Below are positions 1-11,181 of a stretch of DNA of 64,000 nucleotides, one piece after another. How positions within the stretch are numbered: the stretch's first letter is position 1; each line of letters starts with the position of its first letter. The translations under genes were made by a program, and so were the position numbers. The stretch covers positions 62,001 through 126,000 of the forward strand of contig NZ_VRMG01000003.1 in assembly GCF_008040105.1 (NCBI RefSeq). The letters run 5' to 3'. The stretch comes from Lacisediminihabitans profunda. Its GTDB lineage: Bacteria; Actinomycetota; Actinomycetes; Actinomycetales; Microbacteriaceae. The notes beneath the pieces are model-generated. The model worked only from the letters and a program-made list of their open reading frames with translations, was not told the DNA's origin and searched no databases.

Positions 1-1782
1 ATCCGGGTGGACCTGGCGAACGCGAGCGCCTCACCGCCGCCGTGGTTCTCACACAAATACCCCCAGTCGCTGCCGGTGACAGCCACGGGGGTGCGCCTCG
101 GCTACGGGTCGCGCCAGGCGTTCTGCGCCTCCAGCCCCGAATACCGGGCGGCGGCCGCGGCGCTGACCACCGAGATCGCCAGACGGTACGCCGAGCACCC
201 TGCCGTGATCATGTGGCACGTGCACAACGAGTACGGCTGCCACAATCAGCCCTGCTACTGCGACGTCTCCGGTGCTGCCTTCCAACGCTGGCTGGAAAAG
301 AAGTACGTCACCGTCGACGCGCTCAACGAGGCCTGGGGCACCGCATTCTGGTCGCAGCACTACTACCACTTCGACGAGATCACCCCGCCCCGCCAGTCCG
401 GCACCTTCATCAACCCCACCCAGGTTCTGGACTTCGCCCGGTTCTCCTCGGACGAGCTCCTCGAGTGCTACGACGCGGAGGCGCGCATCCTGCGTGAACA
501 CTCGCCGCATCCGGTCACGACGAACTTCATGGGATTCATGATGGGACTCGACAAGCCCATCGACTACTGGAAGTGGGCCGACCACCTCGATGTGGTGTCG
601 AACGATCACTATCTCATCGCCGAAGACCCGCGCAACTTCCAAGAGCTGGCGATGACCGCCGACTTCATCCGGAGCCTGGCCTCCGGGGCACCGTGGCTGC
701 TCATGGAGCACTCGACCTCCGCCGTGAACTGGCAACCCCGCAACATCGCGAAGGCCCCGGGGGAGATGCTGCGCAACTCGCTGCAGCACGTGGCCCGGGG
801 GGCGGATGCCGCCCTGTTCTTCCAATGGCGAGCCGCGAAGGCCGGTTCGGAGAAGTTCCACTCGGCGATGCTGCCGCACGCCGGCACCGACTCGAAGGTC
901 TGGCGGGAGGTGGTCGGGCTCGGCTCGGCGCTGAAGAAGATCGCCGAGGTGGTGGGCTCGCGCGTCGTGGGAGCCGATGTCGCGATCATCCACGACACAG
1001 ACGCCCGCTGGGCGAGCGAGCTCGACGCGCATCCGAGCGTCGACACGAACGCGATGGCGGAGACGCGACTCTGGCATGACGCGTTCTACCGCCTGGGCCT
1101 CACCACCGACTTCCGGCGCTCCACCGACGACCTCGCGGGCTATCGCCTGGTGGTCGTGCCGATGCAATACCTCATGACGGATGACGGCGCACGCAACCTG
1201 CGCGCCTTCGCCGAGTCCGGCGGCACGGTCGTGGTGACCTACCTGTCCGGCATCGTGGACGAGGACGACCACATTCGTCTCGGTGGTTACCCCGGCGCCT
1301 TCGTCGACCTGATCGGGATTCGCATCGAGGAGTTCTTCCCGCTTCGGGCGGATGAGAAGGTGCCGCTCAGCCGGTACGGCCCGGGTCTCCGGTTCAGCGA
1401 GCTCGGCCGTGCCACCGGCGCGGAGGTGCTTGCGGAGTATGCAGGCGGACCGACCGCCGGTTCCCCGGCGGTCAGCCGCAACCGCCTCGGCAGCGGCTCG
1501 GCCTACTACGTGGGAACCTCGCTCACCGAGGCGGGGGTGCTGCAACTCATCTCCGACATCGTCGGCGAGGCTGGCGTCACGCCGGCCCACACCGTGACGG
1601 GAGAGGTCGAGGTCGTGCGCCGCTCGGACGGCGAACACACCTGGACCTTCGCCATCAACCACGGAGACTCCGTCGGCGTCGTGCACGTCGACGGCATCGA
1701 CCTGCTGACCGACACCATCACCGACGGGCGGCTCACCGTCGCCGCCGGGGGCGTCGCGGTGGTGCGGGAGTCCGCGCGGTGA
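1..1782 (+). CDS. Beta-galactosidase, GH42 family (5' end outside window)
   Basis: Hydrolyses terminal beta-galactosides, probably in the cytoplasm. The visible part begins inside the catalytic barrel: the first residues match the usual GH42 segment before the catalytic HNEYG motif (Glu near visible residue 77), so the GTG at position 7 is internal and the true start lies upstream. A Cys-rich CxxxxCYCD stretch, typical of the GH42 zinc site, follows directly. The nucleophile is the Glu of LLMEHS near residue 236. The trimerisation-like middle domain and small C-terminal beta domain are complete. The stop overlaps the GTG of the GH36 gene by four bases, so the two are co-translated for galactoside breakdown. 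Confidence 0.93.
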   Translation: MRVDLANASASPPPWFSHKYPQSLPVTATGVRLGYGSRQAFCASSPEYRAAAAALTTEIARRYAEHPAVIMWHVHNEYGCHNQPCYCDVSGAAFQRWLEKKYVTVDALNEAWGTAFWSQHYYHFDEITPPRQSGTFINPTQVLDFARFSSDELLECYDAEARILREHSPHPVTTNFMGFMMGLDKPIDYWKWADHLDVVSNDHYLIAEDPRNFQELAMTADFIRSLASGAPWLLMEHSTSAVNWQPRNIAKAPGEMLRNSLQHVARGADAALFFQWRAAKAGSEKFHSAMLPHAGTDSKVWREVVGLGSALKKIAEVVGSRVVGADVAIIHDTDARWASELDAHPSVDTNAMAETRLWHDAFYRLGLTTDFRRSTDDLAGYRLVVVPMQYLMTDDGARNLRAFAESGGTVVVTYLSGIVDEDDHIRLGGYPGAFVDLIGIRIEEFFPLRADEKVPLSRYGPGLRFSELGRATGAEVLAEYAGGPTAGSPAVSRNRLGSGSAYYVGTSLTEAGVLQLISDIVGEAGVTPAHTVTGEVEVVRRSDGEHTWTFAINHGDSVGVVHVDGIDLLTDTITDGRLTVAAGGVAVVRESAR

Positions 1783-3884
1783 ACGACCTCGTCACTCTGC
1801 GCGGGGGAGACTCCGCGTTCATCATCGACCTGTCCCGCGCGACGCCCGAGGTGGTGCACTGGGGGTCTGACCTGGGGGAGCCTGCACGCCTCGCCGTCTC
1901 GAGTCATCCGGTGCCTCCCTCGTCGGTGGGCAGCCCATACCGGCGGGAACTGGTGCCCCAGGCCTCGAGCGGATGGCGCGGCCGGCCGGCCGTCGAGGGC
2001 CACCGGCCGGACGGCCGGGCGTTCTCTCCGTCGCTGGTGACCACGGGTTCACGGGCCCTCGGCGAACACGGGCACGAAATCACGATGTCGGATGACGCCG
2101 CGGCGATCGAGCTGATCATCGAGATCCATCTCACGGCTGAGGGGATGCTGCGCCTGCGGAGCACCCTGCAGAACCTCGGCGACACCTCCTATTCACTGCT
2201 GTCGCTGACCAACTCGGTGCCCACCGGGCTCGGAGCCGCGGAGATCCTCGACCTCTCCGGCCGCTGGTGCCGGGAACAGCATCCCCAGCGTCAGTCCCTC
2301 AGACAGGGAACCTGGCTGCGCGAGTACCGCCACGGTCGCACCGGGCACGACTCCTCGCTCTTCACCGCGGTCGGCACGGCCGGCTTCGGCAACCGGTCCG
2401 GCGCGGTCTGGGCCACCCACTTCGGCTTCAGCGGCAATCGGGCGACGACCGTGGAGAAGACGCCATCCGGTCCCGCCCTGATCGGCAACTCCGAGCTCTT
2501 CTCCCCCGGCGAGGTCGTGCTCGCGCCCGGCGAGTCGCACGCCACGCCGTGGACCTACGCCGCCCACTCCGCGCGCGGGCTCGACGGGGTCACGGAGACC
2601 TTCCACCGGTGGCTGCGGTCGAGGCCGAGCCATCCGGCGTCCCCGCGGCCGGTCGTGCTCAACACCTGGGAGGCGGTGTACTTCCACCACGACATCGGCA
2701 ACCTGCTCGAGCTCTCCGAGGCCGCGCAGCGAATCGGCGTCGAACGCTTCGTGCTCGACGACGGCTGGTTCAGGCACCGTCGCAACGACACCGCCGGGCT
2801 CGGCGACTGGTATGTGGACGAGGACGTCTGGCCGAACGGCCTGACCGCGCTCATCGACGATGTGCGCTCCCGCGGCATGGACTTCGGACTCTGGGTCGAG
2901 CCCGAGATGGTGAACGAGGACTCGGATGTGATCCGGGCGCATCCGGACTGGCTGAGCGGGCCCGGCCTCGGCCGCACCCCGGTCGAGTGGCGCCACCAGC
3001 AGGTGATCGACCTCGTGAACCCCGACGCGTGGGACTACGTTTTCTCCCGCCTCGACGCGCTTCTGTCCGAGAACGAGATCTCCTACCTCAAGTGGGACCA
3101 GAACCGTGACCTCACCGAGATGGGGCACGCCGGGGCGGCATCGACGCACGAACAGACGCTCGCCGCCTACCGTCTCATGGACGAGCTGAGGCTGGCGCAT
3201 CCCTCCGTGGAGATCGAGAGCTGCTCCTCCGGGGGCGCGCGGGTCGACCTGGGGGTGCTCGAACGCACGGACCGGGTCTGGGCGTCGGACTGCAACGATG
3301 CGCTCGAGCGCCAGACCATCCAGCGCTGGACGGAGGCGATCCTGCCGCCGGAGCTCGTGGGAACGCACGTGGGGCCGACGACGGCACACACGACGCACCG
3401 CACGCATTCCCTGTCGTTCCGGGCCGTCACGGCGATGTTCGGCCACTTCGGCATCGAGTGGGACGTGCGAGGCCTGGACGACGCGGAGTTCTCGGAGCTG
3501 AGCCAGGCGGTCGACCTCTACAAGACCCACCGCGGTCTCATCCACTCGGGAACGGCGGTTCACGCCGACCTCGCGGACCCGGCCTACTCGCTCAGCGGTG
3601 TGGTGGCGTCGGACCGCTCGGAGGCGCTCTTTGCCTTCGTGAGTGTCGCGACCTCGTTCGACGAGATCCCCGGCCAGGTAGGTTTCCCCGGCCTCGACCC
3701 TCTGGCGGACTACGAGGCGACGGTGATCTTCCCCACTCTGAGCTCGCCGTACCGGGCGATCACGAATGTGGGCTGGATTCCGGACGGGATCACCGCCTCG
3801 GGCCTCTTCCTCGCGGAGGTCGGCCTTCCGATGCCCGTGCTGAACCCGGAGCACGGCATCCTCATCCGGCTGGTGCGACGCTGA
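1779..3884 (+). CDS. Alpha-galactosidase, GH36 family
   Basis: Releases alpha-linked galactose from melibiose- or raffinose-type sugars. The 701-residue protein has the GH36 order: N-terminal beta-sandwich, central barrel and C-terminal beta domain. The nucleophile is the Asp of KWDQNRD (about residue 440) and the acid/base is the Asp of the WASDCND motif (about residue 504); the CSSGGARVDLG motif lies between them. No signal peptide is visible, so it should act in the cytoplasm on imported oligosaccharides. GTG start at 1779 overlaps the upstream stop as GTGA. It converges with the GH27 gene, whose stop abuts it with no gap. Confidence 0.94.
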   Translation: MNDLVTLRGGDSAFIIDLSRATPEVVHWGSDLGEPARLAVSSHPVPPSSVGSPYRRELVPQASSGWRGRPAVEGHRPDGRAFSPSLVTTGSRALGEHGHEITMSDDAAAIELIIEIHLTAEGMLRLRSTLQNLGDTSYSLLSLTNSVPTGLGAAEILDLSGRWCREQHPQRQSLRQGTWLREYRHGRTGHDSSLFTAVGTAGFGNRSGAVWATHFGFSGNRATTVEKTPSGPALIGNSELFSPGEVVLAPGESHATPWTYAAHSARGLDGVTETFHRWLRSRPSHPASPRPVVLNTWEAVYFHHDIGNLLELSEAAQRIGVERFVLDDGWFRHRRNDTAGLGDWYVDEDVWPNGLTALIDDVRSRGMDFGLWVEPEMVNEDSDVIRAHPDWLSGPGLGRTPVEWRHQQVIDLVNPDAWDYVFSRLDALLSENEISYLKWDQNRDLTEMGHAGAASTHEQTLAAYRLMDELRLAHPSVEIESCSSGGARVDLGVLERTDRVWASDCNDALERQTIQRWTEAILPPELVGTHVGPTTAHTTHRTHSLSFRAVTAMFGHFGIEWDVRGLDDAEFSELSQAVDLYKTHRGLIHSGTAVHADLADPAYSLSGVVASDRSEALFAFVSVATSFDEIPGQVGFPGLDPLADYEATVIFPTLSSPYRAITNVGWIPDGITASGLFLAEVGLPMPVLNPEHGILIRLVRR

Positions 3885-5111
3885 TCAGGGGCTGATCGGC
3901 GAGAGCCTCAGCAGCACCAGCCCGTGCGCCGGCACGACGGCGGCGAGACGTCCGGAGCCGTTCGACGTCTCGGCGCCGGACCACAGGTCGCGCACGAGCC
4001 ACCGGCCAGGGGGCAGCCCGACGGCCGACACGGTGGTGCGAATTGTCGCCGCGTCGGCGGTGGTGTTGAGCAGCGCGATGGCGAGGTCGCCGTGCACGAG
4101 CGACTTCGCCCAGACCTCGTGCCCGCCCGCCCGACTGACGCGGAAGGCCTGCCGGCCCAGGCGGTCCTGGTCGAGGGCGAGCACGCCCGCGTTGCGGAGT
4201 ACGCCGACGGTCGATCGGGGGAGCGCGCCGATGTCGGTGCCCAGGATCAGCGGCGCGGACAGCATGCACCACATGCCGAAGTGGGTCTTCGTCTCCGCCT
4301 CGGTGAGCCCGGCATTGCCGATCTCGAGCATGTCCGGATCGTTCCACGCGCCGGGTCGCGAGTAGTGAGCCAGGGGGGCCTGGGCGTCGATGCGGTCGGC
4401 GATCGACTTCCAGGTGGGGTGGATGTCATGGCTGGTACGCCACAGGTTCGCGAGCCCCGGCGCCCACAGCCACGGCTTCTGCACCCCGTACTCGGAGATC
4501 GAGTACACGATCTTACGACCGGTCGCCCGGAGCGCGTCGCCCATCTTCGCGAAGGCGGGCCGCTCGCGCAGGCCGTCGGTGAGGTCGGCGCGGCACCAGT
4601 CGTACTTGAGAAAGTCCACGCCCCAGCGTGCGAATGTCGCGGCATCCTGCGTCTCGTGCCCGAGGCTCCCGATGCCCCGCACCGGGTACTGCGCGTAGTA
4701 GTTGGCGCAGGTCTGGCTGCCGGGCACCGCGTACAGACCGAACTTCAGGCCCCGGGCGTGCACGTAGGCGGCGAGGGCGGGGATGCCGGAGGGGAATCGC
4801 GACGCGTCGGCGGTGAGGGTGCCCGCCGTGTCACGCGGCCCCTGCCAACAGTCGTCGACCACCACGTACCGGTAACCGGACCGGGCCAGCCCCGAGACGA
4901 CGAGTCCGTCGGCGGCGGCCTTGACCACCTTCTCGTCGAGACCGGAGCAGCCGACCTGGTTCCAGCTGTTCCAACCCATGGGCGGGGTCGGGGCGAGCGC
5001 CGCCCCGGGGGACAGCACTCCTGATGTCGCCGCAGGCACGAGCAACACGAGGAGGGCGACGAGGAGCCACGCGACGACGACCCGCCCTGCCCGCCTCGCG
5101 CCCGACCTCAC
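3885..5111 (-). CDS. Exported alpha-galactosidase, GH27 family
   Basis: A 408-residue protein with an Arg-rich start, a hydrophobic segment at about residues 11-30 and a likely signal-peptide cleavage region before residue 40, so it is probably secreted. It then has the family hallmark PPMGWNSWN, a VVDDCWQ strand, the nucleophile Asp in FLKYDWC (residue 171) and the probable acid/base Asp in TSHDIHPTW. It would cleave alpha-galactosides outside the membrane, complementing the cytoplasmic GH36 enzyme that ends next to it on the opposite strand. There is no carbohydrate-binding or sorting domain, and the length is normal for a catalytic domain plus a short C-terminal sandwich. Confidence 0.92.
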   Translation of the reverse strand: MRSGARRAGRVVVAWLLVALLVLLVPAATSGVLSPGAALAPTPPMGWNSWNQVGCSGLDEKVVKAAADGLVVSGLARSGYRYVVVDDCWQGPRDTAGTLTADASRFPSGIPALAAYVHARGLKFGLYAVPGSQTCANYYAQYPVRGIGSLGHETQDAATFARWGVDFLKYDWCRADLTDGLRERPAFAKMGDALRATGRKIVYSISEYGVQKPWLWAPGLANLWRTSHDIHPTWKSIADRIDAQAPLAHYSRPGAWNDPDMLEIGNAGLTEAETKTHFGMWCMLSAPLILGTDIGALPRSTVGVLRNAGVLALDQDRLGRQAFRVSRAGGHEVWAKSLVHGDLAIALLNTTADAATIRTTVSAVGLPPGRWLVRDLWSGAETSNGSGRLAAVVPAHGLVLLRLSPISP

Positions 5112-5168: not shown

Positions 5169-7589
5169 TCAGAGGCCGTCCGCCACGGCCGCTCCGGCCG
5201 CGAGCCAGGCATCCTGGGTGGCGCGGTTCAGGGAATCGAAGCGAAGCGCACCGCCGTGCAGCGCTCGGTCGAAGGGGATGGTAACGACCGCCCTGGCGAT
5301 GGTCGCGAAACCCTCGGCAATGCGCTGGGCTGCGGCCATGCCTCCGTTCCGCTCGGATTGCAGCACCACTACCACCGCGTTCTCCGCGAGTCTCGCCGAG
5401 TGCTCATCCCGATCCTGAAGCGCCTCGAGGAGCAGCGCACCGGACTCCGCCGCCTCGCCGAGCGCGGTGGTGGCCACCACGAGCTGGTCGGTGTGGTCGA
5501 TCATCCGCAGCCAGCGCGGGGCCGACTCGTCATTCCCCGAGTCGAAGAAGACCATGCGGTAGTACTTCGTGACCACCACCTGCAGCGCGTCGAAGTCCGC
5601 CTGGGTGATTCTCTGCCCGGTGGCGAGAAGCTCGGGATTCGATCGCAGCACGTCGTACTTGTCGCTGGTCTGGTGGTGCACGAAGGGAGCGAGATCCGAC
5701 ACCCTCGCATCCGGCAGGAGGAGACGTTCCGTCTCGGGCAGCAGATCATGCACCGTCGCGTCGTGGTCGCTCTTCTCGGTGCGCCAGCCCAGCGTGCCCC
5801 GAGTGTCGTTGTTGTCCCAGGCCAACACGCCGGAGCCCCCGTTCCGGGCGAACACGGCGGCGAGCATCGCGTTGGTCACGGTCTTGCCCACGCCGCCCTT
5901 GCCGTTGACGACGGCGATCCCCCGGGGTCCTGACCAGTGCCGGCTCACCGCCTGCACGCGGCGGCGATGCTCGAGTTCCGACTCCGTGGGCGGAACCTGG
6001 AGTCCGGTCGCTCGGGCCACCAGCCCGCGCCAGCCGTCCACGGCCGGTGGCTCCACGTCCAACTCGGTGAGGAACGATACACGGGCGGGCCGAAGCGTCG
6101 AGGGGGGCTCGTCGCGCACCGGCTCGTCCGACTTTCGGGCGGGCGCCATCAGCCAGGGAGCGGGCGATGGCCGGGGCATGAGGGTCGCGACCGGTCGTAC
6201 CTCTGTGGGGTCGGTGCCCGCGGACGGTTCGTCGGGGGTGGGTTGTGGTGCGTTCTCGTTCACGATGGATGTCCTCTCGGGTCGTTCGGACGGCCCGGAG
6301 TGAACCGGGCCGATTCGGTGGGCGGCGGCCCCGGCCGCCGCGACGAGGCTGCGCCCCAGCACGAGCGCGAGCCCGGCGAGGGGAAGCACAAGAAGGATCA
6401 CGGACAGCGCGCCGAGAGCTGCCTCGGGCGCCCGCCCGGCGGCGAAGGCCGCGCCGGTCGCCGCCGTGTGGGAGGCGATCGCCCCCACCGTCTGCGCGAT
6501 GATGGCCGGCAGGTTCCAGAGCAACCAGCCGAACGCCACGACGAGGAGCGGGATCACCGTGAGCACCCACACGGTGACGATTCGCCGGGCCGCCGGTCGA
6601 AGCTCGGTCACCCGGGGATCCGGCTCGCGGCCGGGCAGCAGGCTGCGCAGCACGGGACCCACCCGGGAGAACAGGTCCGGAATCCCGGCGAGGTCGGCGA
6701 GCACGAAATAGCCGTCGAGCCTGATCGTGGGCGGGAGTTGCTGCAGCATCTGGAATTGCGTGGCGATCACGAAGAGGAAGAAGATGCCGTCGCGGGTGAT
6801 GAGGTAACCCGCCCCGGCCAGCAGAACGCACCACACGTTGAAGTAGAGCCCGCCGAGGTCGGTGCGCACGCGGCCCGCCCGGCCGAGGCGGTACGAGTCG
6901 GTCACATTCGTGAAGAACGCCGGGAAGACCAGATAGAGCCCGAAGCCGACCACCCCGGGTTCGGCGCCGCCGAAACGGCACGCCGTCGCATGCCCCAGTT
7001 CGTGGATGAGCCCACCGAGGGTCAGCAGCGCGAAGAGGGCGAGCAGCAGGGTCGGGGTGATCAGAATCTGCCGCACCGCGTTCTGGAAGTCCCCGGTCGC
7101 CAGCAGCACGGCATCCAGAACGATCAGTGCGAGCACCGCGACCACCACGACGGGTGCGAGATAGAGGGGGGAGAGCCACCCCGCGATCCGACGCACGACG
7201 GACGCGGGGAGGATCGTGCCGCGAAGGCTCAGGCTGAGCAGGGGGCGCGCGGTCGCCGGATGCTCGGGCGCCGGCGCCCGGCCGGTCACGTCCTCGATGA
7301 GTCCCAGGGGGCCGAGTTTCGTCTCGATGAGGTGATGCAGGCCGTCCACGGTGAGTTCCTTGCCGAAGGTCGCGCTCACGGCGGTGGCGAGTTCGGGAGC
7401 GGCCCGACCGTTGCCCGCCTTCTCGAGCACGAGGTTCAGCAGTTCGGAGAGCTGCACCACCTGTTCGTCGCGGCGCTGCACGAGATAGGTCGGCTTCGTC
7501 AGTCCGGATCCGGACACCAGACCGAGCGAGTGCACGCCGGGGGCGCGACGCCAGATTGCCCGGTCGATGTCTTTCGTGTCTGATGTCAT
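5169..7589 (-). CDS. Membrane M50 zinc metallopeptidase fused to MinD/ParA-like ATPase
   Basis: An 806-residue two-part protein. Residues about 15-105 form a small helical N-terminal region like those before 'putative peptide zinc metalloproteases'. Residues about 140-420 are a multi-pass membrane site-2-type protease with the zinc motif HELGH (196-200) and third-ligand motif RLDGYF (Asp 292). A Pro-rich linker (about 440-545) leads to a MinD/ParA-like ATPase with the deviant Walker A GKGGVGKT (563-570) and a later FFDSGND. There is no stop between the parts, but a GTG at 6263 (residue 443) preceded by AGAGG could start the ATPase separately. ATG at 7589 was preferred to ATG 7622 because tandem repeats occupy the region between. 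Last gene of the SARP-peptide locus; a likely role is cleaving or exporting the two small peptides (inference). Confidence 0.85.
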   Translation of the reverse strand: MTSDTKDIDRAIWRRAPGVHSLGLVSGSGLTKPTYLVQRRDEQVVQLSELLNLVLEKAGNGRAAPELATAVSATFGKELTVDGLHHLIETKLGPLGLIEDVTGRAPAPEHPATARPLLSLSLRGTILPASVVRRIAGWLSPLYLAPVVVVAVLALIVLDAVLLATGDFQNAVRQILITPTLLLALFALLTLGGLIHELGHATACRFGGAEPGVVGFGLYLVFPAFFTNVTDSYRLGRAGRVRTDLGGLYFNVWCVLLAGAGYLITRDGIFFLFVIATQFQMLQQLPPTIRLDGYFVLADLAGIPDLFSRVGPVLRSLLPGREPDPRVTELRPAARRIVTVWVLTVIPLLVVAFGWLLWNLPAIIAQTVGAIASHTAATGAAFAAGRAPEAALGALSVILLVLPLAGLALVLGRSLVAAAGAAAHRIGPVHSGPSERPERTSIVNENAPQPTPDEPSAGTDPTEVRPVATLMPRPSPAPWLMAPARKSDEPVRDEPPSTLRPARVSFLTELDVEPPAVDGWRGLVARATGLQVPPTESELEHRRRVQAVSRHWSGPRGIAVVNGKGGVGKTVTNAMLAAVFARNGGSGVLAWDNNDTRGTLGWRTEKSDHDATVHDLLPETERLLLPDARVSDLAPFVHHQTSDKYDVLRSNPELLATGQRITQADFDALQVVVTKYYRMVFFDSGNDESAPRWLRMIDHTDQLVVATTALGEAAESGALLLEALQDRDEHSARLAENAVVVVLQSERNGGMAAAQRIAEGFATIARAVVTIPFDRALHGGALRFDSLNRATQDAWLAAGAAVADGL

Positions 7590-7600
7590 GGTGCACGTCT

Positions 7601-7642
7601 CTGTGCATTCGTGTCTATGCATTCGTGTCTGTGCGTTCGTGC
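7601..7642 (-). repeat. Three 14-nt tandem repeats before the M50-ATPase gene
   Basis: Three back-to-back units on the plus strand, CTGTGCATTCGTGT, CTATGCATTCGTGT and CTGTGCGTTCGTGC, differing by one to three bases. On the coding (minus) strand they read as ACACGAATG-type cores 14 bp apart, ending 11 bases upstream of the chosen ATG. They may be a regulator site or a leader feature. The period differs from the 11 bp expected of SARP boxes. Confidence 0.8.
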
Positions 7643-7650
7643 GTCAACGA

Positions 7651-7676
7651 CGGGCACGCCCGGTAGAACGTGCCCG
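7651..7676 (-). promoter_or_regulatory. Intercistronic hairpin between peptide gene and protease gene
   Basis: Perfect 8-bp arms CGGGCACG / CGTGCCCG with a 10-base loop, lying 22 bases beyond the peptide stop codon and just before the 14-nt repeats. No T tract follows on the minus strand, so it is more likely a partial attenuator or an mRNA 3'-end stabiliser than a full terminator. That would favour peptide over protease synthesis (inference). Confidence 0.55.
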
Positions 7677-7698
7677 CCGAGTAGACGAACCGGTGAGG

Positions 7699-7905
7699 CT
7701 ACGGATGGACCAACGCGAGGTGCTGCAACGCGTTCGCGCTCGCAGTCGAGGCCATCGTCGCGGCGTTGATCGCCAGGGCGAGGTTCACTGCGATGACGGG
7801 GGAGACGTTGATGTTGAAATCAAGGAACAGCGTCTCGCGAGCAGGCAATAGTTCCGCGGTCTCGAGATCGAGAACGTCGGGGCTGAGGGCGGTTGTTGCC
7901 TTCAT
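7699..7905 (-). CDS. Small exported-peptide candidate B (68 aa, ELLPxRETLF family)
   Basis: A 68-residue Cys-free peptide. Its first 27 residues are acidic and polar and end in ELLPARETLF (18-27). The rest is a low-complexity Ala/Asn-rich tail with alternating hydrophobic residues (NIN, VNLALAINAAT, Gln 61). It aligns without gaps to peptide A over at least 43 positions: ELLPxRETLF, NxN, Asn, AINAAT and Gln fall at identical offsets. ATG 7905 was chosen over the in-frame GTG at 7914 because GGAAGGG then sits at good spacing. The arrangement, a conserved N-terminal recognition-like segment, a variable tail and a membrane protease downstream, is what precursor peptides look like. No known RiPP class is recognised. 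Confidence 0.75.
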   Translation of the reverse strand: MKATTALSPDVLDLETAELLPARETLFLDFNINVSPVIAVNLALAINAATMASTASANALQHLALVHP

Positions 7906-7964
7906 GACTTTCACCCTTCCGTCGTGCCCGGCGCCGCGCGGGCGACGCCAGGCGCGACTCAGAA

Positions 7965-8162
7965 TCAGTGTTGCGAGACGCTAATGGCCTGCATTGCCGC
8001 GCTGTTGGCCTGGGACCACAATGTCGCCGCGTTGATCGCCATCGAGGAGTTCGAAGCGTAGACGGCTGCCCAGTTGAGGTTGGAGTTCCAGAAGAGCGTT
8101 TCTCTCGTCGGCAGCAACTCCACCGACTGGCCTTCGAGTTCCCTGATCGTGAGTTTTTCCAT
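7965..8162 (-). CDS. Small exported-peptide candidate A (65 aa, ELLPxRETLF family)
   Basis: A 65-residue Cys-free peptide starting MEKLTIRELEG and carrying ELLPTRETLF at 15-24, then an Asn/Ala/Ser-rich tail with NLN (28-30), Asn 38, AINAAT (42-47), Gln 58 and Gln 64. It is a clear paralogue of peptide B, 59 bases upstream of it. ATG 8162 was chosen over a longer in-frame start at 8198 because it is preceded by a near-perfect Shine-Dalgarno and lies downstream of the putative SARP-controlled promoter. Strong translation is expected. With no Cys, thioether-bridged peptide classes are unlikely; the beta-strand-like alternation could suit a fibre or pore-forming peptide (inference). Confidence 0.77.
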   Translation of the reverse strand: MEKLTIRELEGQSVELLPTRETLFWNSNLNWAAVYASNSSMAINAATLWSQANSAAMQAISVSQH

Positions 8163-8166
8163 TTCA

Positions 8167-8178
8167 ATCACCCCCTTT
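8167..8178 (-). promoter_or_regulatory. Near-perfect ribosome binding site of peptide A
   Basis: The minus strand reads AAAGGGGGTGAT, one base off the full anti-16S complement AAAGGAGGTGAT, four bases before the ATG at 8162. Most genes in the window have only four to six matching bases. It fixes the start of peptide A and predicts high expression. Confidence 0.8.
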
Positions 8179-8231
8179 GCGGGCTCGGGCGATTCCAATT
8201 CGAATCGGGTGAGGCCAGTGAACTCCCGCCG

Positions 8232-8272
8232 AAGGTACGGCCGCGTTATCGCGCCGTTACCTCTCCGTTACC
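8232..8272 (-). promoter_or_regulatory. Putative SARP boxes and -10 element of the peptide genes
   Basis: On the minus strand, heptamers GGTAACG (8272-8266), GGTAACG (8261-8255) and GATAACG (8250-8244) recur at exactly 11-bp spacing with 4-bp spacers, the classical layout of SARP/AfsR-family binding sites. A TANNNT-type hexamer TACCTT (8237-8232) follows 6 bp further on, close to the 8 bp typical of SARP promoters. The first heptamer overlaps the stop codon of the CxxC-protein gene. A SARP gene lies in the same locus, which makes this assignment attractive; binding itself is inferred. Confidence 0.65.
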
Positions 8273-9014
8273 CGCCGAGTTTGAGGTCGATGCTTCGCTG
8301 GACGCTCGCGGCGCCGGTGCCAGACACGATGATCTTCTGAAGTCGGTCGGCGGCCTGGGTGGCGAGACTCTCAAGTTGTGGTGCGGCCAGGCGTCGCGAA
8401 TTCGACTGCGGAGCGGGGGCGAGACTGGCGGCCAGTTCGGTCTGGATCTGGTCGATCAGCGCGTGAGCCTGGGCGGAGAGCTCTCGGCGGGTGCCCCCCG
8501 CGATCACGAACTGGATGGCCGCCGCCGACGTGGAACACCCGGTGCAGGCCACGTTGAGGGCGAGGGCACGGTTGTTCACGGTGATGGGCTGGGCTCGGCG
8601 AACCACAACGAGCTGCACCGACACCGACGAGGCACCGCAGCTGGCGCAACTCGACCAGGCGGTGGCCGTGTTGTCGGCGAGAGCCGGACCCGAACCGTCG
8701 AAGTAGACGACCTGGAAGGTGGTGGCTGTGCCCTGGCAGCCGTCGCAATTGCTCGTCGCGACCGCCGATGCCACCGATTTCGGCGCGTTCCGGCCGGCGT
8801 GCGCCGTGGCATCGACCCGATCGGCCGCCGTCGGCTGGGCCGCGGTGGGAATCGCGGACGACGCGGTGTCGAAGCGGCCAACCCCCACGAGGCGGTCGAC
8901 ATCGGTGTGACCCGAGCCCTCGGCGGCGGTGGGGCCCGCGATCATCCCCACCAGAAGCGCGCCGGTCAGGAGAGAAACCATGCCGGCGGTGGTGATCAGT
9001 TTCCTGGGAAGCAT
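8268..9014 (-). CDS. Exported protein with three CxxC repeats
   Basis: A 248-residue protein with an N-terminal signal peptide (hydrophobic residues 10-26, likely cleavage near AAEG at 30-33). Residues 88-172 hold three repeats with CxxC pairs at 90/93, 123/126 and 157/160, each followed by a Gln exactly 11 residues after the first Cys, giving a 33-34-residue period. Two repeats end in NxAxA strands (NTATAW, NRALALN), echoing the NLALAIN and NSSMAIN strands of the neighbouring peptides. The C-terminus is helical and Ala-rich. The Cys pairs could bind metal, form disulfides or take part in cross-links. Function unknown; it may be the surface partner or scaffold of the small peptides (inference). 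Confidence 0.8.
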   Translation of the reverse strand: MLPRKLITTAGMVSLLTGALLVGMIAGPTAAEGSGHTDVDRLVGVGRFDTASSAIPTAAQPTAADRVDATAHAGRNAPKSVASAVATSNCDGCQGTATTFQVVYFDGSGPALADNTATAWSSCASCGASSVSVQLVVVRRAQPITVNNRALALNVACTGCSTSAAAIQFVIAGGTRRELSAQAHALIDQIQTELAASLAPAPQSNSRRLAAPQLESLATQAADRLQKIIVSGTGAASVQRSIDLKLGG

Positions 9015-9080
9015 TCCTGTGCCTCAATTCCTGTTCGGTCGTGCCTGGATCGTGCGATGGGACTGATGCGCGGGGGCGCC

Positions 9081-9803
9081 TCAGCGCCGGGCGTGCCGAC
9101 TGGTGAGGACGCCGTCGAGGAGCTCCGCGAACCGCGGGGATGGCGCGATGCTCATCTCCTCGAGGAGTCGCTCCTCGAGCGAATGGTAGAGGCGCATGGC
9201 GGCGGCGCTGTTGCCCAGGGCCAGGTGGCAGCGCGCCAGGAGCAGGTGGGAACTCTCGCGGAGCGGTTCGATCTCGACGGCTGCGCTCGCCGCATCCAGC
9301 GCCCGGCCGATGTCTGCGATGGCGAGGTAGTGCTCCGCGAGGGTCTCGAGCGCGAGGAGCCGCTGGGAGTCCAGCCGCTCTCGTTCGAACAGCACCCAGT
9401 CCTCGTACCAGTCCGGCAGGAGGTCGGCACCCCGGAGATCGTGGATGGCATCGACGCCAACGGAGTGGAGCCTGTCGATCTCGGCGATGGTCCGGCGCAC
9501 CCGGTTCACATCGACGACGACGGACGGATCCAGGGCCAGCGGGTTGGATGAGGGGTGGAGGAGCCCGGGCTGCTGGTGGGTGATCGCGTGCAGGCTGGCC
9601 CGGAGGCTACCGGCCGCCTGCGACTCGGAGCAATCCGGCCAGAGGAGGTTGGCGAAGTAGGTTCTGGAGCGGGTGCCGGCCAGTGCGAGCGCGGTGATGA
9701 GGCGTTGTTGCCGGCTGCTCACGCTGGCGGCCTCGCCGTCGAGACTCAACTGCCAGCAGTTGAGTAGGGTGAGCTCCCAACTCGGTGCAGCACGTGCTAT
9801 CAC
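9081..9803 (-). CDS. SARP-type regulator (winged helix plus BTAD domain)
   Basis: A 240-residue protein of the AfsR/DnrI (SARP) family. An OmpR-like winged helix occupies about residues 8-95, with the family-like segment YFANLLWPDCSESQAAGSLRASLHAI reduced here to key features: LLWPD, then a Ser-Leu-Arg helix. A helical bacterial transcriptional activation (BTAD) domain follows at about 100-235. It has no NTPase or TPR extension, like pathway-specific activators of secondary metabolism. First gene of the locus, with its own promoter at 9889-9917. Heptamers with 11-bp spacing upstream of the peptide genes are the expected target. No other biosynthetic cluster lies nearby, so its regulon is probably this locus. 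Confidence 0.85.
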   Translation of the reverse strand: MIARAAPSWELTLLNCWQLSLDGEAASVSSRQQRLITALALAGTRSRTYFANLLWPDCSESQAAGSLRASLHAITHQQPGLLHPSSNPLALDPSVVVDVNRVRRTIAEIDRLHSVGVDAIHDLRGADLLPDWYEDWVLFERERLDSQRLLALETLAEHYLAIADIGRALDAASAAVEIEPLRESSHLLLARCHLALGNSAAAMRLYHSLEERLLEEMSIAPSPRFAELLDGVLTSRHARR

Positions 9804-9925: not shown

Positions 9926-10165
9926 CTAGTCGCGCGCGCGCTCCGGCTTGGCCGTGGCCGGTTCCGCGGGGTGGGAAAGCCAGTCACGGACGGCATTCAG
10001 AACCTGTTCGGGGTCCGTGGCGAAGACGACCGAGGGCTCGATGTTGGGCAGCTCTTCCATCGTCACCCTCGCCCGGAAGCCATGGTCGCTGTGAGGTTCC
10101 GACCACACGCGAACGACCATCGTGCGCCAGGACGAACCGTCGTCCCCACCATTCCTGCTGTCCAT
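9926..10165 (-). CDS. Small hypothetical protein (79 aa)
   Basis: A 79-residue soluble protein without a signal peptide. After a polar, Gly/Ser-rich start the core reads as a beta-rich segment (MVVRVWSEP, FRARVTMEEL) followed by an amphipathic helix (ATDPEQVLNAVRDWL), and the tail is Ala/Pro/Arg-rich. Codon use matches the neighbours, and the ATG at 10165 is preceded by a GGGGCG run. An internal ATG at 10120 would give a 64-residue form. I recognise no family. It ends 9 bases before the -35 of the SARP promoter and does not look functionally tied to that locus. Confidence 0.6.
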   Translation of the reverse strand: MDSRNGGDDGSSWRTMVVRVWSEPHSDHGFRARVTMEELPNIEPSVVFATDPEQVLNAVRDWLSHPAEPATAKPERARD

Positions 10166-10347: not shown

Positions 10348-11181
10348 ATGGCCGGGTCAAAGAAGACGAAGAAGAAGCCCTCGGCTCGGCGAGTGGCGAG
10401 GCAGGCCTACGAGGCCGAGCTCGAGCGACTGCAGATCGAGCTCGTGAGCATGCAGCAGTGGGTCAACGCCACGGGCGCGCGCGTGGTCGTGGTGTTCGAG
10501 GGCCGCGACGCCGCGGGCAAGGGCGGCGCCATCAAGCGCATCATGCAGTACCTCAACCCGCGGACTGCCCGGGTCGTGGCGCTCCCCATGCCGAGTGAGC
10601 GGGAACGCGGACAGTGGTACTTCCAGCGCTACATCGAGCGGCTTCCGACGGCCGGTGAGATCGTGCTCTACGACCGGTCCTGGTACAACCGAGCGGGTGT
10701 CGAGCACGTCATGGGCTACTGCACTCCGCAGCAGTACGAGCTCTTCCTCCAGCAGGCGCCGGACTTCGAACGAATGATCGTCGCCGACGGGATCATCCTG
10801 ATCAAGTACTGGTTCTCGGTCTCAGACGCAGAGCAGGAGGCGAGATTCAAGTCGCGGCTCAACGACCCGATGCGGCGTTGGAAGCTCTCCGAAACAGACC
10901 TGCTGTCGATCAGCCGGTGGGAGGACTACTCCCGGGCGAAGGACGAGATGTTCGCGTACACCGACATCCCGGAGGCACCGTGGTGGACGATCGAGAGCGA
11001 CGACAAGCGATCGGCGCGGCTCAACGCCATCAACCATCTCCTCGGCCAGGTGCCGTACGAGTCGCTGGAGCCGGAGAGCGTGGAGATCCCGCCTCGACCA
11101 CGCGCCGACGACTACGAGCGTCCGCCCCGTGAGCTGCACCGGCACGTTCCGGATCACGCGGAGACTCTGCGCGCCACCTGA
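10348..11181 (+). CDS. ppk2: Polyphosphate kinase 2 (PPK2 family)
   Basis: Transfers phosphate between polyphosphate and nucleoside diphosphates. The 277-residue protein has a Lys-rich start, the PPK2 Walker A EGRDAAGKGGAIKR (about residues 51-64), the Walker B-like VLYDRSWYNRAGVE and a lid region with RFKSRLNDPMRRWKLS. The motif set resembles the one-domain class that phosphorylates ADP or GDP. ATG 10348 was chosen because upstream in-frame codons lack family character. A different PPK2 subtype occurs at 48439. The last 28 bases overlap the convergent membrane-protein gene. Confidence 0.93.
   Translation: MAGSKKTKKKPSARRVARQAYEAELERLQIELVSMQQWVNATGARVVVVFEGRDAAGKGGAIKRIMQYLNPRTARVVALPMPSERERGQWYFQRYIERLPTAGEIVLYDRSWYNRAGVEHVMGYCTPQQYELFLQQAPDFERMIVADGIILIKYWFSVSDAEQEARFKSRLNDPMRRWKLSETDLLSISRWEDYSRAKDEMFAYTDIPEAPWWTIESDDKRSARLNAINHLLGQVPYESLEPESVEIPPRPRADDYERPPRELHRHVPDHAETLRAT

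What the first reader, a model, noticed from the sequence alone, without database searches (positions are those of the whole stretch)
5169..9803. Candidate undescribed locus: SARP regulator, CxxC-repeat exported protein, two small peptides, M50 protease-ATPase fusion
Five same-strand genes with no metabolic function share regulation-like and sequence features: a SARP activator, an exported three-repeat CxxC protein, two paralogous Cys-free peptides with ELLPxRETLF, and a membrane zinc protease fused to a MinD/ParA ATPase. SARP proteins normally control secondary metabolite clusters, and M50 proteases of this RLDGY type are found with exported peptides. I know of no described system with this content. 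A reasonable model is a regulated peptide that is matured and exported by the protease and assembles with the CxxC protein at the surface.
Basis: partly seen in the sequence, partly recalled or inferred. Interest (0 to 1): 0.87.

Follow-up and report, generated by a model that had tools for sequence, protein, structure and literature searches.

The report
Peptide-export locus with self-similar surface protein
A conserved set of bacterial genes appears to make two tiny peptides, cut and release them with a membrane protease, and probably stack them onto an exported protein built from a similar repeat, which would be a new kind of surface-assembly system in soil bacteria.

Summary
In detail: SARP, secreted CxxC protein, peptides A and B, and one ORF joining an M50 protease to a MinD/ParA ATPase lie on one strand (9803-5169). 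A sixth small gene (10165-9926) belongs with them. In 55 loci chosen only by similarity to the protease, both peptides occur in 55, SARP in 52, CxxC in 38 and the protease-ATPase fusion in 39. A simpler core (peptide, protease, CxxC) is found in Acidimicrobiia, Thermoleophilia, Chloroflexi MAGs and a Streptomyces plasmid. In seven Microbacteriaceae protease and CxxC domain are one protein. Peptides and CxxC protein match no Pfam, NCBIfam, PHROGs or PADLOC family. New here: peptide cores and CxxC repeats share one N/Q-spaced unit; the CxxC protein is predicted as repeated strand-turn-strand units, three of the four turns holding a CxxC; the ATPase joined the protease more than once. Best model: an RRE-guided M50 protease removes the leaders and releases one-unit peptides that co-assemble on the CxxC protein, much as curli subunits do. 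Cutting, export and assembly are inferred, not shown. Defining features of daptides, epipeptides and curli that were tested are not met.

The parts
9926..10165 (-). Sixth gene, small conserved protein (79 codons from the first start), function unknown
   Evidence: Relatives beside SARP in 28 of 55 type-I loci; no family above cut-off
9081..9803 (-). SARP/BTAD transcription activator
   Evidence: PF03704 E 3.7e-17; relatives in 52 of 55 type-I and 0 of 24 type-II loci
8268..9014 (-). Secreted CxxC-repeat protein, predicted repeated strand-turn-strand fold
   Evidence: Model pLDDT 84.5, pTM 0.79; relatives in 38 of 55 type-I loci, 15 of 24 type-II loci; fused to the protease in 7 Microbacteriaceae
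7965..8162 (-). Peptide A precursor, 65 aa: leader ending ELLPTRETLF, then Asn/Ala/Ser/Gln-rich core
   Evidence: Relatives in 55 of 55 type-I loci
7699..7905 (-). Peptide B precursor, 68 aa: leader ending ELLPARETLF, then core
   Evidence: Relatives in 55 of 55 type-I loci, never more than one
6264..7622 (-). M50 membrane metalloprotease half, with an RRE/PqqD-like N-terminal domain (about residues 24-115)
   Evidence: NF041824 E 1.8e-27, below cut-off; H207 E208 H211 and the D303-G304 motif invariant in 8 aligned proteins; PqqD weak in 3 of 14 N-terminal domains, not in the window's own
5169..6263 (-). MinD/ParA-type ATPase half of the same ORF
   Evidence: PF13614 E 2.5e-8 for this half; fusion in 39 of 55 type-I loci

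Best explanation
A regulated peptide-maturation and surface-assembly system that works like curli but is fed by a RiPP-style protease. (1) SARP switches the block on (inferred from position and conservation). (2) Peptides A and B are made as leader-plus-core precursors (leader conservation shown). (3) The leader, L-x-x-E-L...ELLPxRETL, is bound by the RRE/PqqD-like N-terminal domain of the M50 protease (inferred; weak profile support). (4) The protease cuts after the leader and releases cores of about 40 residues outward (inferred from MpaP and EpeP). (5) Each core is one strand-turn-strand unit with fixed Asn/Ala/Gln spacing, and the exported CxxC protein holds several such units in tandem (spacing shown, fold predicted). 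(6) A and B therefore stack with each other and on the CxxC protein, which anchors or seeds a surface polymer (inferred). (7) The fused MinD/ParA ATPase places or drives the machine (inferred; repeated independent fusion is supported by the trees).
For: Co-occurrence in loci chosen on the protease alone: A and B 55 of 55, SARP 52, CxxC 38, fusion 39. Genome level: CxxC in 16 of 396, M50 in 25 of 396, both in 14, Fisher p 2.4e-17. M50-CxxC single proteins in 7 Microbacteriaceae, each with a leader-bearing repeat protein just upstream. Shared unit: N-x19-Q in 75/75 A, 55/55 B, 62/64 C, 30/30 CxxC proteins against shuffle means 11.9, 8.8, 18.2, 8.3; profile alignment of each core to the third CxxC repeat in one register, score reached by 0, 0 and 1 of 200 column shuffles. 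Predicted CxxC fold of strand pairs with a period of 32-33. Cores near neutral (mean net charge A -0.55, B -0.65). MpaP and EpeP precedents (passages).
Against: No experiment shows cutting, export or polymer. hhalign probabilities are low (17, 26, 6%) and the reversed B profile scores nearly as well (22.1 against 25.3). The related sequences are not independent. No significant fold match for the CxxC model (best E 0.14) or for the peptide model (none). CxxC is missing locally in 17 of 55 type-I loci; of the 12 of these whose genomes were searched, 2 (L071, L109) have none at all. The RRE assignment is weak: no PqqD hit for the window's own domain and no PDB match. Coordinates of the models could not be inspected.
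Confidence: 0.45

Rival explanations
1. A two-peptide antimicrobial: the protease releases A and B, which act together on competitors, as the daptides do; the CxxC protein is an accessory or protection factor and SARP is the usual antibiotic-type activator.
For: Paired paralogous peptides with exactly one B per locus; SARP; nearest protease families serve daptides (synergistic hemolysins, PMC10036551 passages) and epipeptides.
Against: Cores are neutral to slightly acidic; no further gene family in more than 16 of 56 loci, so no conserved immunity gene or transporter was seen (crude gene calls); cores and CxxC repeats share a unit; type II has up to four similar tandem peptides.
Confidence: 0.22
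2. A signalling-peptide system: the released peptides are sensed by neighbours or by the same cell, and the CxxC protein is a surface receptor or sink.
For: SARP nearby; membrane proteases release pheromones in other bacteria (recalled).
Against: Strongly conserved cores in nearly all positions over a whole phylum are unlike variable pheromones; no conserved sensor kinase was seen (crude).
Confidence: 0.1
3. An envelope-stress or spore/coat module in which the peptides are minor structural fillers and the CxxC protein works in thiol exchange.
For: Three CxxC motifs outside the membrane; core genes in many soil actinobacteria.
Against: CxxC motifs sit in turns of a repeat fold, not in a thioredoxin fold; the only thioredoxin hit is E 0.39 for one relative; several relatives have lost Cys pairs, e.g. 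L067.
Confidence: 0.1
4. The protease-ATPase fusion is an artefact or a chance read-through of a neighbouring plasmid-type ATPase gene, not one protein.
For: ATPase half 65% identical to a stand-alone plasmid ATPase, stand-alone in six congeners at 59-67%, own GTG with ribosome-binding site; draft assembly.
Against: The same in-frame fusion is found in 39 of 55 relatives, L063 of Mycetocola included.
Confidence: 0.05

Closest known systems
Daptide biosynthesis, protease MpaP/DapP (NF041824)
   Same: RRE-type intramembrane M50 protease beside several short leader-bearing peptides (PMC10036551 passages)
   Different: Protease is below the family cut-off (96 of 300 bits); no decarboxylase, aminotransferase or methyltransferase conserved; window peptides do not end in Thr
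Epipeptide maturation, protease EpeP/YydH/LiaK (NF058609)
   Same: M50 protease thought to cut and export one small peptide (PMC10885120 passages)
   Different: 45 of 225 bits; no radical-SAM epimerase recognised among conserved genes (crude)
Curli (CsgA/CsgB) and Fap functional amyloids
   Same: Strand-turn-strand repeats rich in Asn/Gln/Ser/Ala; seed protein resembles the subunit; CsgA repeats 19-23 and FapC repeats about 34 residues (PMC9268375 passages)
   Different: No sequence family match and no significant fold match; subunits are single-unit peptides with RiPP-like leaders; no outer-membrane pore, Gram-positive hosts
Plasmid transfer-region ParA/MinD-like ATPase (e.g. pA19BH1)
   Same: 65% identical to the window's ATPase half
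   Different: Stand-alone beside transfer genes there, fused to an M50 protease here

Membership tests
Daptide RiPPs | Protease above the NF041824 cut-off | tested here: not met
   96.4 bits against 300
Daptide RiPPs | C-terminal Thr on the precursor | tested here: not met
   Window peptides end in His and Pro
Daptide RiPPs | Oxidative decarboxylase, aminotransferase and methyltransferase in the cluster | tested here: not met
   No such family conserved: nothing further in more than 16 of 56 loci (crude gene calls that also under-counted CxxC, 21 there against 38 by profile)
Epipeptides | LiaK/YydH protease above cut-off | tested here: not met
   45.2 bits against 225
RiPPs in general | Leader-core precursor and RRE domain | tested here: inconclusive
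   Leader conserved in 75 A and 55 B sequences; RRE only weakly supported (PqqD in 3 of 14, best E 0.0058; no PDB match)
RiPPs in general | Post-translational modification of the core | not testable with these tools
   No modifying enzyme recognised; needs mass spectrometry
Curli / functional amyloid | Curlin repeat homology | tested here: not met
   No Pfam or NCBIfam family for peptides or CxxC protein
Curli / functional amyloid | Stacked strand-turn-strand fold | tested here: inconclusive
   Strand pairs with a 32-33 period predicted; no significant PDB match, FapC E 0.14, CsgA E 2.0
Curli / functional amyloid | Fibre formation | not testable with these tools
   Needs purified peptides
M50 metalloproteases | HExxH near a membrane segment and an LDG-type second motif | tested here: met
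   H207 E208 H211 and D303 G304 invariant in 8 proteins; segment 186-204 precedes
SARP regulators | BTAD domain | tested here: met
   PF03704 E 3.7e-17
SARP regulators | DNA-binding N-terminal domain and target sites | not tested
   Only the BTAD part was matched, residues 134-231

The most novel reading that the evidence does not exclude
A previously undescribed class of surface-polymer system. Single-unit peptides are released from leaders by an RRE-guided membrane protease and polymerise on an exported protein made of tandem copies of the same unit, with turns capped by CxxC. A MinD/ParA ATPase, fused to the protease more than once in evolution, places the machine in the cell.
Probability: 0.4. 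Interest if true: 0.92.

Novelty: categorically new. Interest (0 to 1): 0.82.

Why it matters
A gene set spread over much of the Actinomycetota, and seen in Chloroflexi MAGs, has peptides, a CxxC protein and a sixth gene without any curated family above cut-off. If the model is right it joins RiPP-style leader processing to functional-amyloid-like assembly, gives a very small self-assembling pair with its own seed protein, and shows how Gram-positive bacteria could release and place a surface polymer. It also offers a strict test case for why ParA/MinD ATPases become fused to membrane proteases.

Tried and rejected
Daptide, epipeptide and curli membership: tested features not met. Fusion as artefact: unlikely, because it recurs. 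Defence: no PADLOC hit. Phage origin: only a ParA-like PHROG for the ATPase half. Empty site: the polyphosphate-kinase-like neighbour (named by eye) is found in 7 of 12 other genomes of the genus; in the 5 regions fetched (2 cut short by contig ends) no window galactosidase gene lies near it, so no clean empty site was seen. Fold searches: CxxC model in PDB and BFVD and peptide model in PDB, nothing significant. Rows dropped: G184 and G209 of the first CxxC search (weak matches with in-frame stops; no M50 protease seen in the fetched 18 kb); L107 (4.3 kb contig, no complete M50 ORF) from both locus groups; 16 of 61 domains (near copies and fragments) before the ATPase tree and one more, alone_L031, before the clade tests; 14 near copies before the M50 tree. 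L117 was filed with type II and corrected. A crude hydropathy count hints at one more membrane segment before the CxxC domain in the M50-CxxC fusions than in the ATPase fusions, which would let the two C-terminal domains face opposite sides; it found only four segments in the window protein and is not relied on.
Full report
What is in the window. On the minus strand, in order: a small gene (10165-9926), a BTAD/SARP regulator (9803-9081), a secreted protein with three CxxC motifs (9014-8268), peptide A (8162-7965), peptide B (7905-7699) and one 817-codon ORF (7622-5169) joining an M50 membrane protease to a MinD/ParA-type ATPase. Read by eye (not searched), the block sits between galactosidase-like genes (1-5111) and a polyphosphate-kinase-like gene (10348-11181). 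The genome is a 4.0 Mb draft of 171 contigs; a search with peptide A found only A and B in it.

No known family. Peptides A and B and the CxxC protein have no match in Pfam or NCBIfam at E 1 or in PADLOC or PHROGs at E 0.01; the sixth gene has none above cut-off. The protease's nearest families are the daptide metalloprotease NF041824 (96 bits, cut-off 300) and YydH/LiaK NF058609 (45 bits, cut-off 225). The daptide profile aligns to residues 47-392, so it takes in the stretch before the protease. Of 14 isolated N-terminal domains, 3 hit PqqD weakly (best E 0.0058; the window's own does not), and the profile finds no RRE structure in the PDB. In daptides an RRE-dependent intramembrane peptidase removes the leader (PMC10036551, passages). 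EpeP is thought to cut and export its peptide (PMC10885120, passages).

First link: protease and CxxC domain are one protein elsewhere. A CxxC search of 299 Microbacteriaceae genomes matched 10, the window's included. In 7 of the 9 others the CxxC domain is the C-terminal part of an M50 protease. Just upstream of each of the seven lies a 213-275 residue protein (start chosen by rule) whose leader, with LPDKEVAS, aligns with the window's ELLPxRETLF and which has two longer repeats.

The locus is conserved. One scan of species genomes with the M50 alignment gave 323 relatives, of which the best 80 loci were kept, so they were chosen on the protease alone and lean to the nearest relatives. Fifty-five are type I (mainly Micrococcaceae and Nocardioidaceae): type-A peptide 55, type-B 55 (never more than one), SARP 52, M50-ATPase fusion 39, CxxC within the locus 38, sixth gene 28. 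SARP is missing in L060, L072 and L094; L060 and L094 begin at a contig end. Twenty-four are type II (Acidimicrobiia, Thermoleophilia, Frankiales, Chloroflexi MAGs and others): peptide type C in 23, M50 ORF in 22, CxxC in 15, SARP and ATPase in none. L107 was left out. Seventeen type-I loci lack a local CxxC gene. The genomes of 12 of them were searched: 10 have CxxC elsewhere, mostly in long frames like the M50-CxxC fusions, and 2 (L071, L109) have none. The other five (L060, L072, L073, L110, L117) were not searched. Clustering of crudely called genes in 56 loci (55 plus the window) found no further family in more than 16 loci. Those gene calls are rough: they found CxxC in only 21 loci.

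Genome-level test. In one sample of 396 genomes of the phylum CxxC matched 16 and the M50 domain 25; both matched in 14, CxxC alone in 2, M50 alone in 11, Fisher p 2.4e-17. In 13 of the 14 the two lie on one contig within about 5.3 kb; in G472 they lie on different contigs. A Streptomyces plasmid (NZ_CP107797.1) has peptide, protease and CxxC protein in a row, all three annotated 'hypothetical protein' (peptide and CxxC recognised by eye).

The small frames are genes. Consensus: A (75) 'lT..EL..e.vELLP.RETL.fn.NwA.v.A.NsS.AlNaat..S.AnSaA.Q.i.V.Q'; B (55) 'l..aeLdaE.aelLP.ReTL.cqf.iNVapVvgVNLA.A.NAAtIgS.AnA.A.Q.l.s.q'; C (64) 'eELeaq.gE.LPdRE.MSLiNAN.AaPvNaAvAaNvLSD.s.AyAnA.Q...I.Qsn'. The counts include the window's A and B; the C set held two Georgenia (L117) peptides that belong to A and B. 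Median dN/dS is 0.36 for A and for B (pairs not independent; one close A pair at 1.68). Mean net charge after the leader is -0.55 (A), -0.65 (B) and -2.59 (C).

A shared unit. Counting from an Asn, A, B and C cores have A4, N6, S12, A14, A18 and Q20, each in 80% or more, and Q26 in 98, 74 and 98% (N0 and Q20 are fixed by the search pattern). CxxC units (38 in 30 proteins) have A4 86%, N6 68%, C9 94%, C12 94%, A18 89%. N-x19-Q occurs in 75/75 A, 55/55 B, 62/64 C and 30/30 CxxC proteins against shuffle means of 11.9, 8.8, 18.2 and 8.3; as the sequences are related this is no probability. In profile-profile alignment each core lands on the third CxxC repeat in one register (P 0.0015, 0.00075, 0.0064, but hhalign probabilities of only 17, 26 and 6%). 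With columns shuffled 200 times the real score is reached 0, 0 and 1 times; the reversed B profile scores 22.1 against 25.3. I read this as suggestive of common origin or strong convergence, not proof.

Structure. The CxxC protein (30 sequences) is predicted with pLDDT 84.5 and pTM 0.79: strand pairs 47-54/62-73, 79-88/94-105, 111-121/127-138, 144-154/161-172, a period of 32-33; the last three turns hold the CxxC motifs; two helices and a strand follow. Coordinates could not be inspected, so stacking is inferred from the strand pattern. Foldseek against the PDB gives nothing significant; the first hit is the functional amyloid FapC (E 0.14) and CsgA is at E 2.0, among many unrelated folds; BFVD gives none. 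Peptide A (128 sequences) has pLDDT about 90 in its core with neither helix nor strand there (pTM 0.40), as a lone strand-turn-strand without a partner might look; it has no PDB match at E 10. Curli, from passages of PMC9268375: repeats form strand-turn-strand hairpins that stack, Ser/Gln/Asn ladders flank a hydrophobic core, and the nucleator CsgB is homologous to the subunit CsgA.

The ATPase. The window's ATPase half is 65% identical to a stand-alone ATPase in a plasmid transfer region, and six congeners have stand-alone copies at 59-67%. In a tree of 45 domains the fused ones lie in three places: a Nocardioides/Georgenia/Intrasporangium group; an Arthrobacter/Pseudarthrobacter group next to a stand-alone ATPase of the window's own genome; and the window and Mycetocola L063 among plasmid-type ATPases, where their being one group is itself unsure (31% of bootstraps). 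Holding all 30 fused domains together is rejected (AU p 3.8e-9), as is joining the last two groups (p 7.9e-9). The groups were named after a first tree had been seen, stand-alone sampling was small (14) and branches are long. On the M50 tree fused and unfused proteases are mixed (5 changes, at least 2 forced; quick tree). Repeated fusion speaks for a working link. By analogy with MinD-like localisers of pili (recalled; one search was seen as a listing only) the ATPase may place the machine.

Near the window. Matches in the 12 other genomes of the genus touch only the ATPase half (11 genomes) or are absent (1), at E 1e-10; several of these genomes are incomplete. In 349 genomes of the family the M50 half matches 9: the window's; G284, with a 64% copy and a 39% copy; and seven at 39-42%, six of them among the fusions and one, G746, not examined. 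The 64% copy has the same order as the window but no CxxC gene beside it. The locus is sporadic here and may have moved horizontally, but no empty site was found.

In print. Paper searches of the open-access library (listings seen, capped) and passages of PMC10036551, PMC12338566, PMC10885120, PMC7470986 and PMC12710340 showed no description of this gene set. Subscription papers were not searched.

Judgement. The gene set, its conservation and the reality of the peptides are shown. Leader recognition and cutting by the protease rest on analogy. Assembly of the peptides with the CxxC protein is the most likely function, inferred from the shared unit and from prediction.

Noticed in passing
L036 (G000:C85:96484-97578): The window's genome has a second ParA/MinD-like ATPase (37% identical to the fused half) that is the tree neighbour of the Arthrobacter fused ATPases.
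   Followed up: partly
L125:7608-7820, L138:7522-7761: Two Streptosporangiales loci keep the ELLPxRETL leader and the protease but have a quite different core after it.
   Followed up: no
L145:2833-3375: A peptide-like protein of 180 residues whose unit is followed by repeated Asp/Asn/Phe-rich segments such as EQNNFIEQNN.
   Followed up: no
Nocardioides loci such as L074, L081, L090: Type-B peptides there have two Cys just after the leader (C-x-x-x-C), absent in the window's peptide B.
   Followed up: no
L067, L068, L084 and other Sinomonas loci: 13 of 55 type-I loci carry more than one type-A peptide but always one type-B, which suggests unequal stoichiometry.
   Followed up: no
L203 (G303:C245): A congener has the stand-alone plasmid-type ATPase about 6 kb from its polyphosphate-kinase-like gene, the same gene that flanks the window's locus.
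   Followed up: no
window 1-5111: Neighbouring group of galactosidase-like genes, one of them secreted, named by eye only.
   Followed up: no
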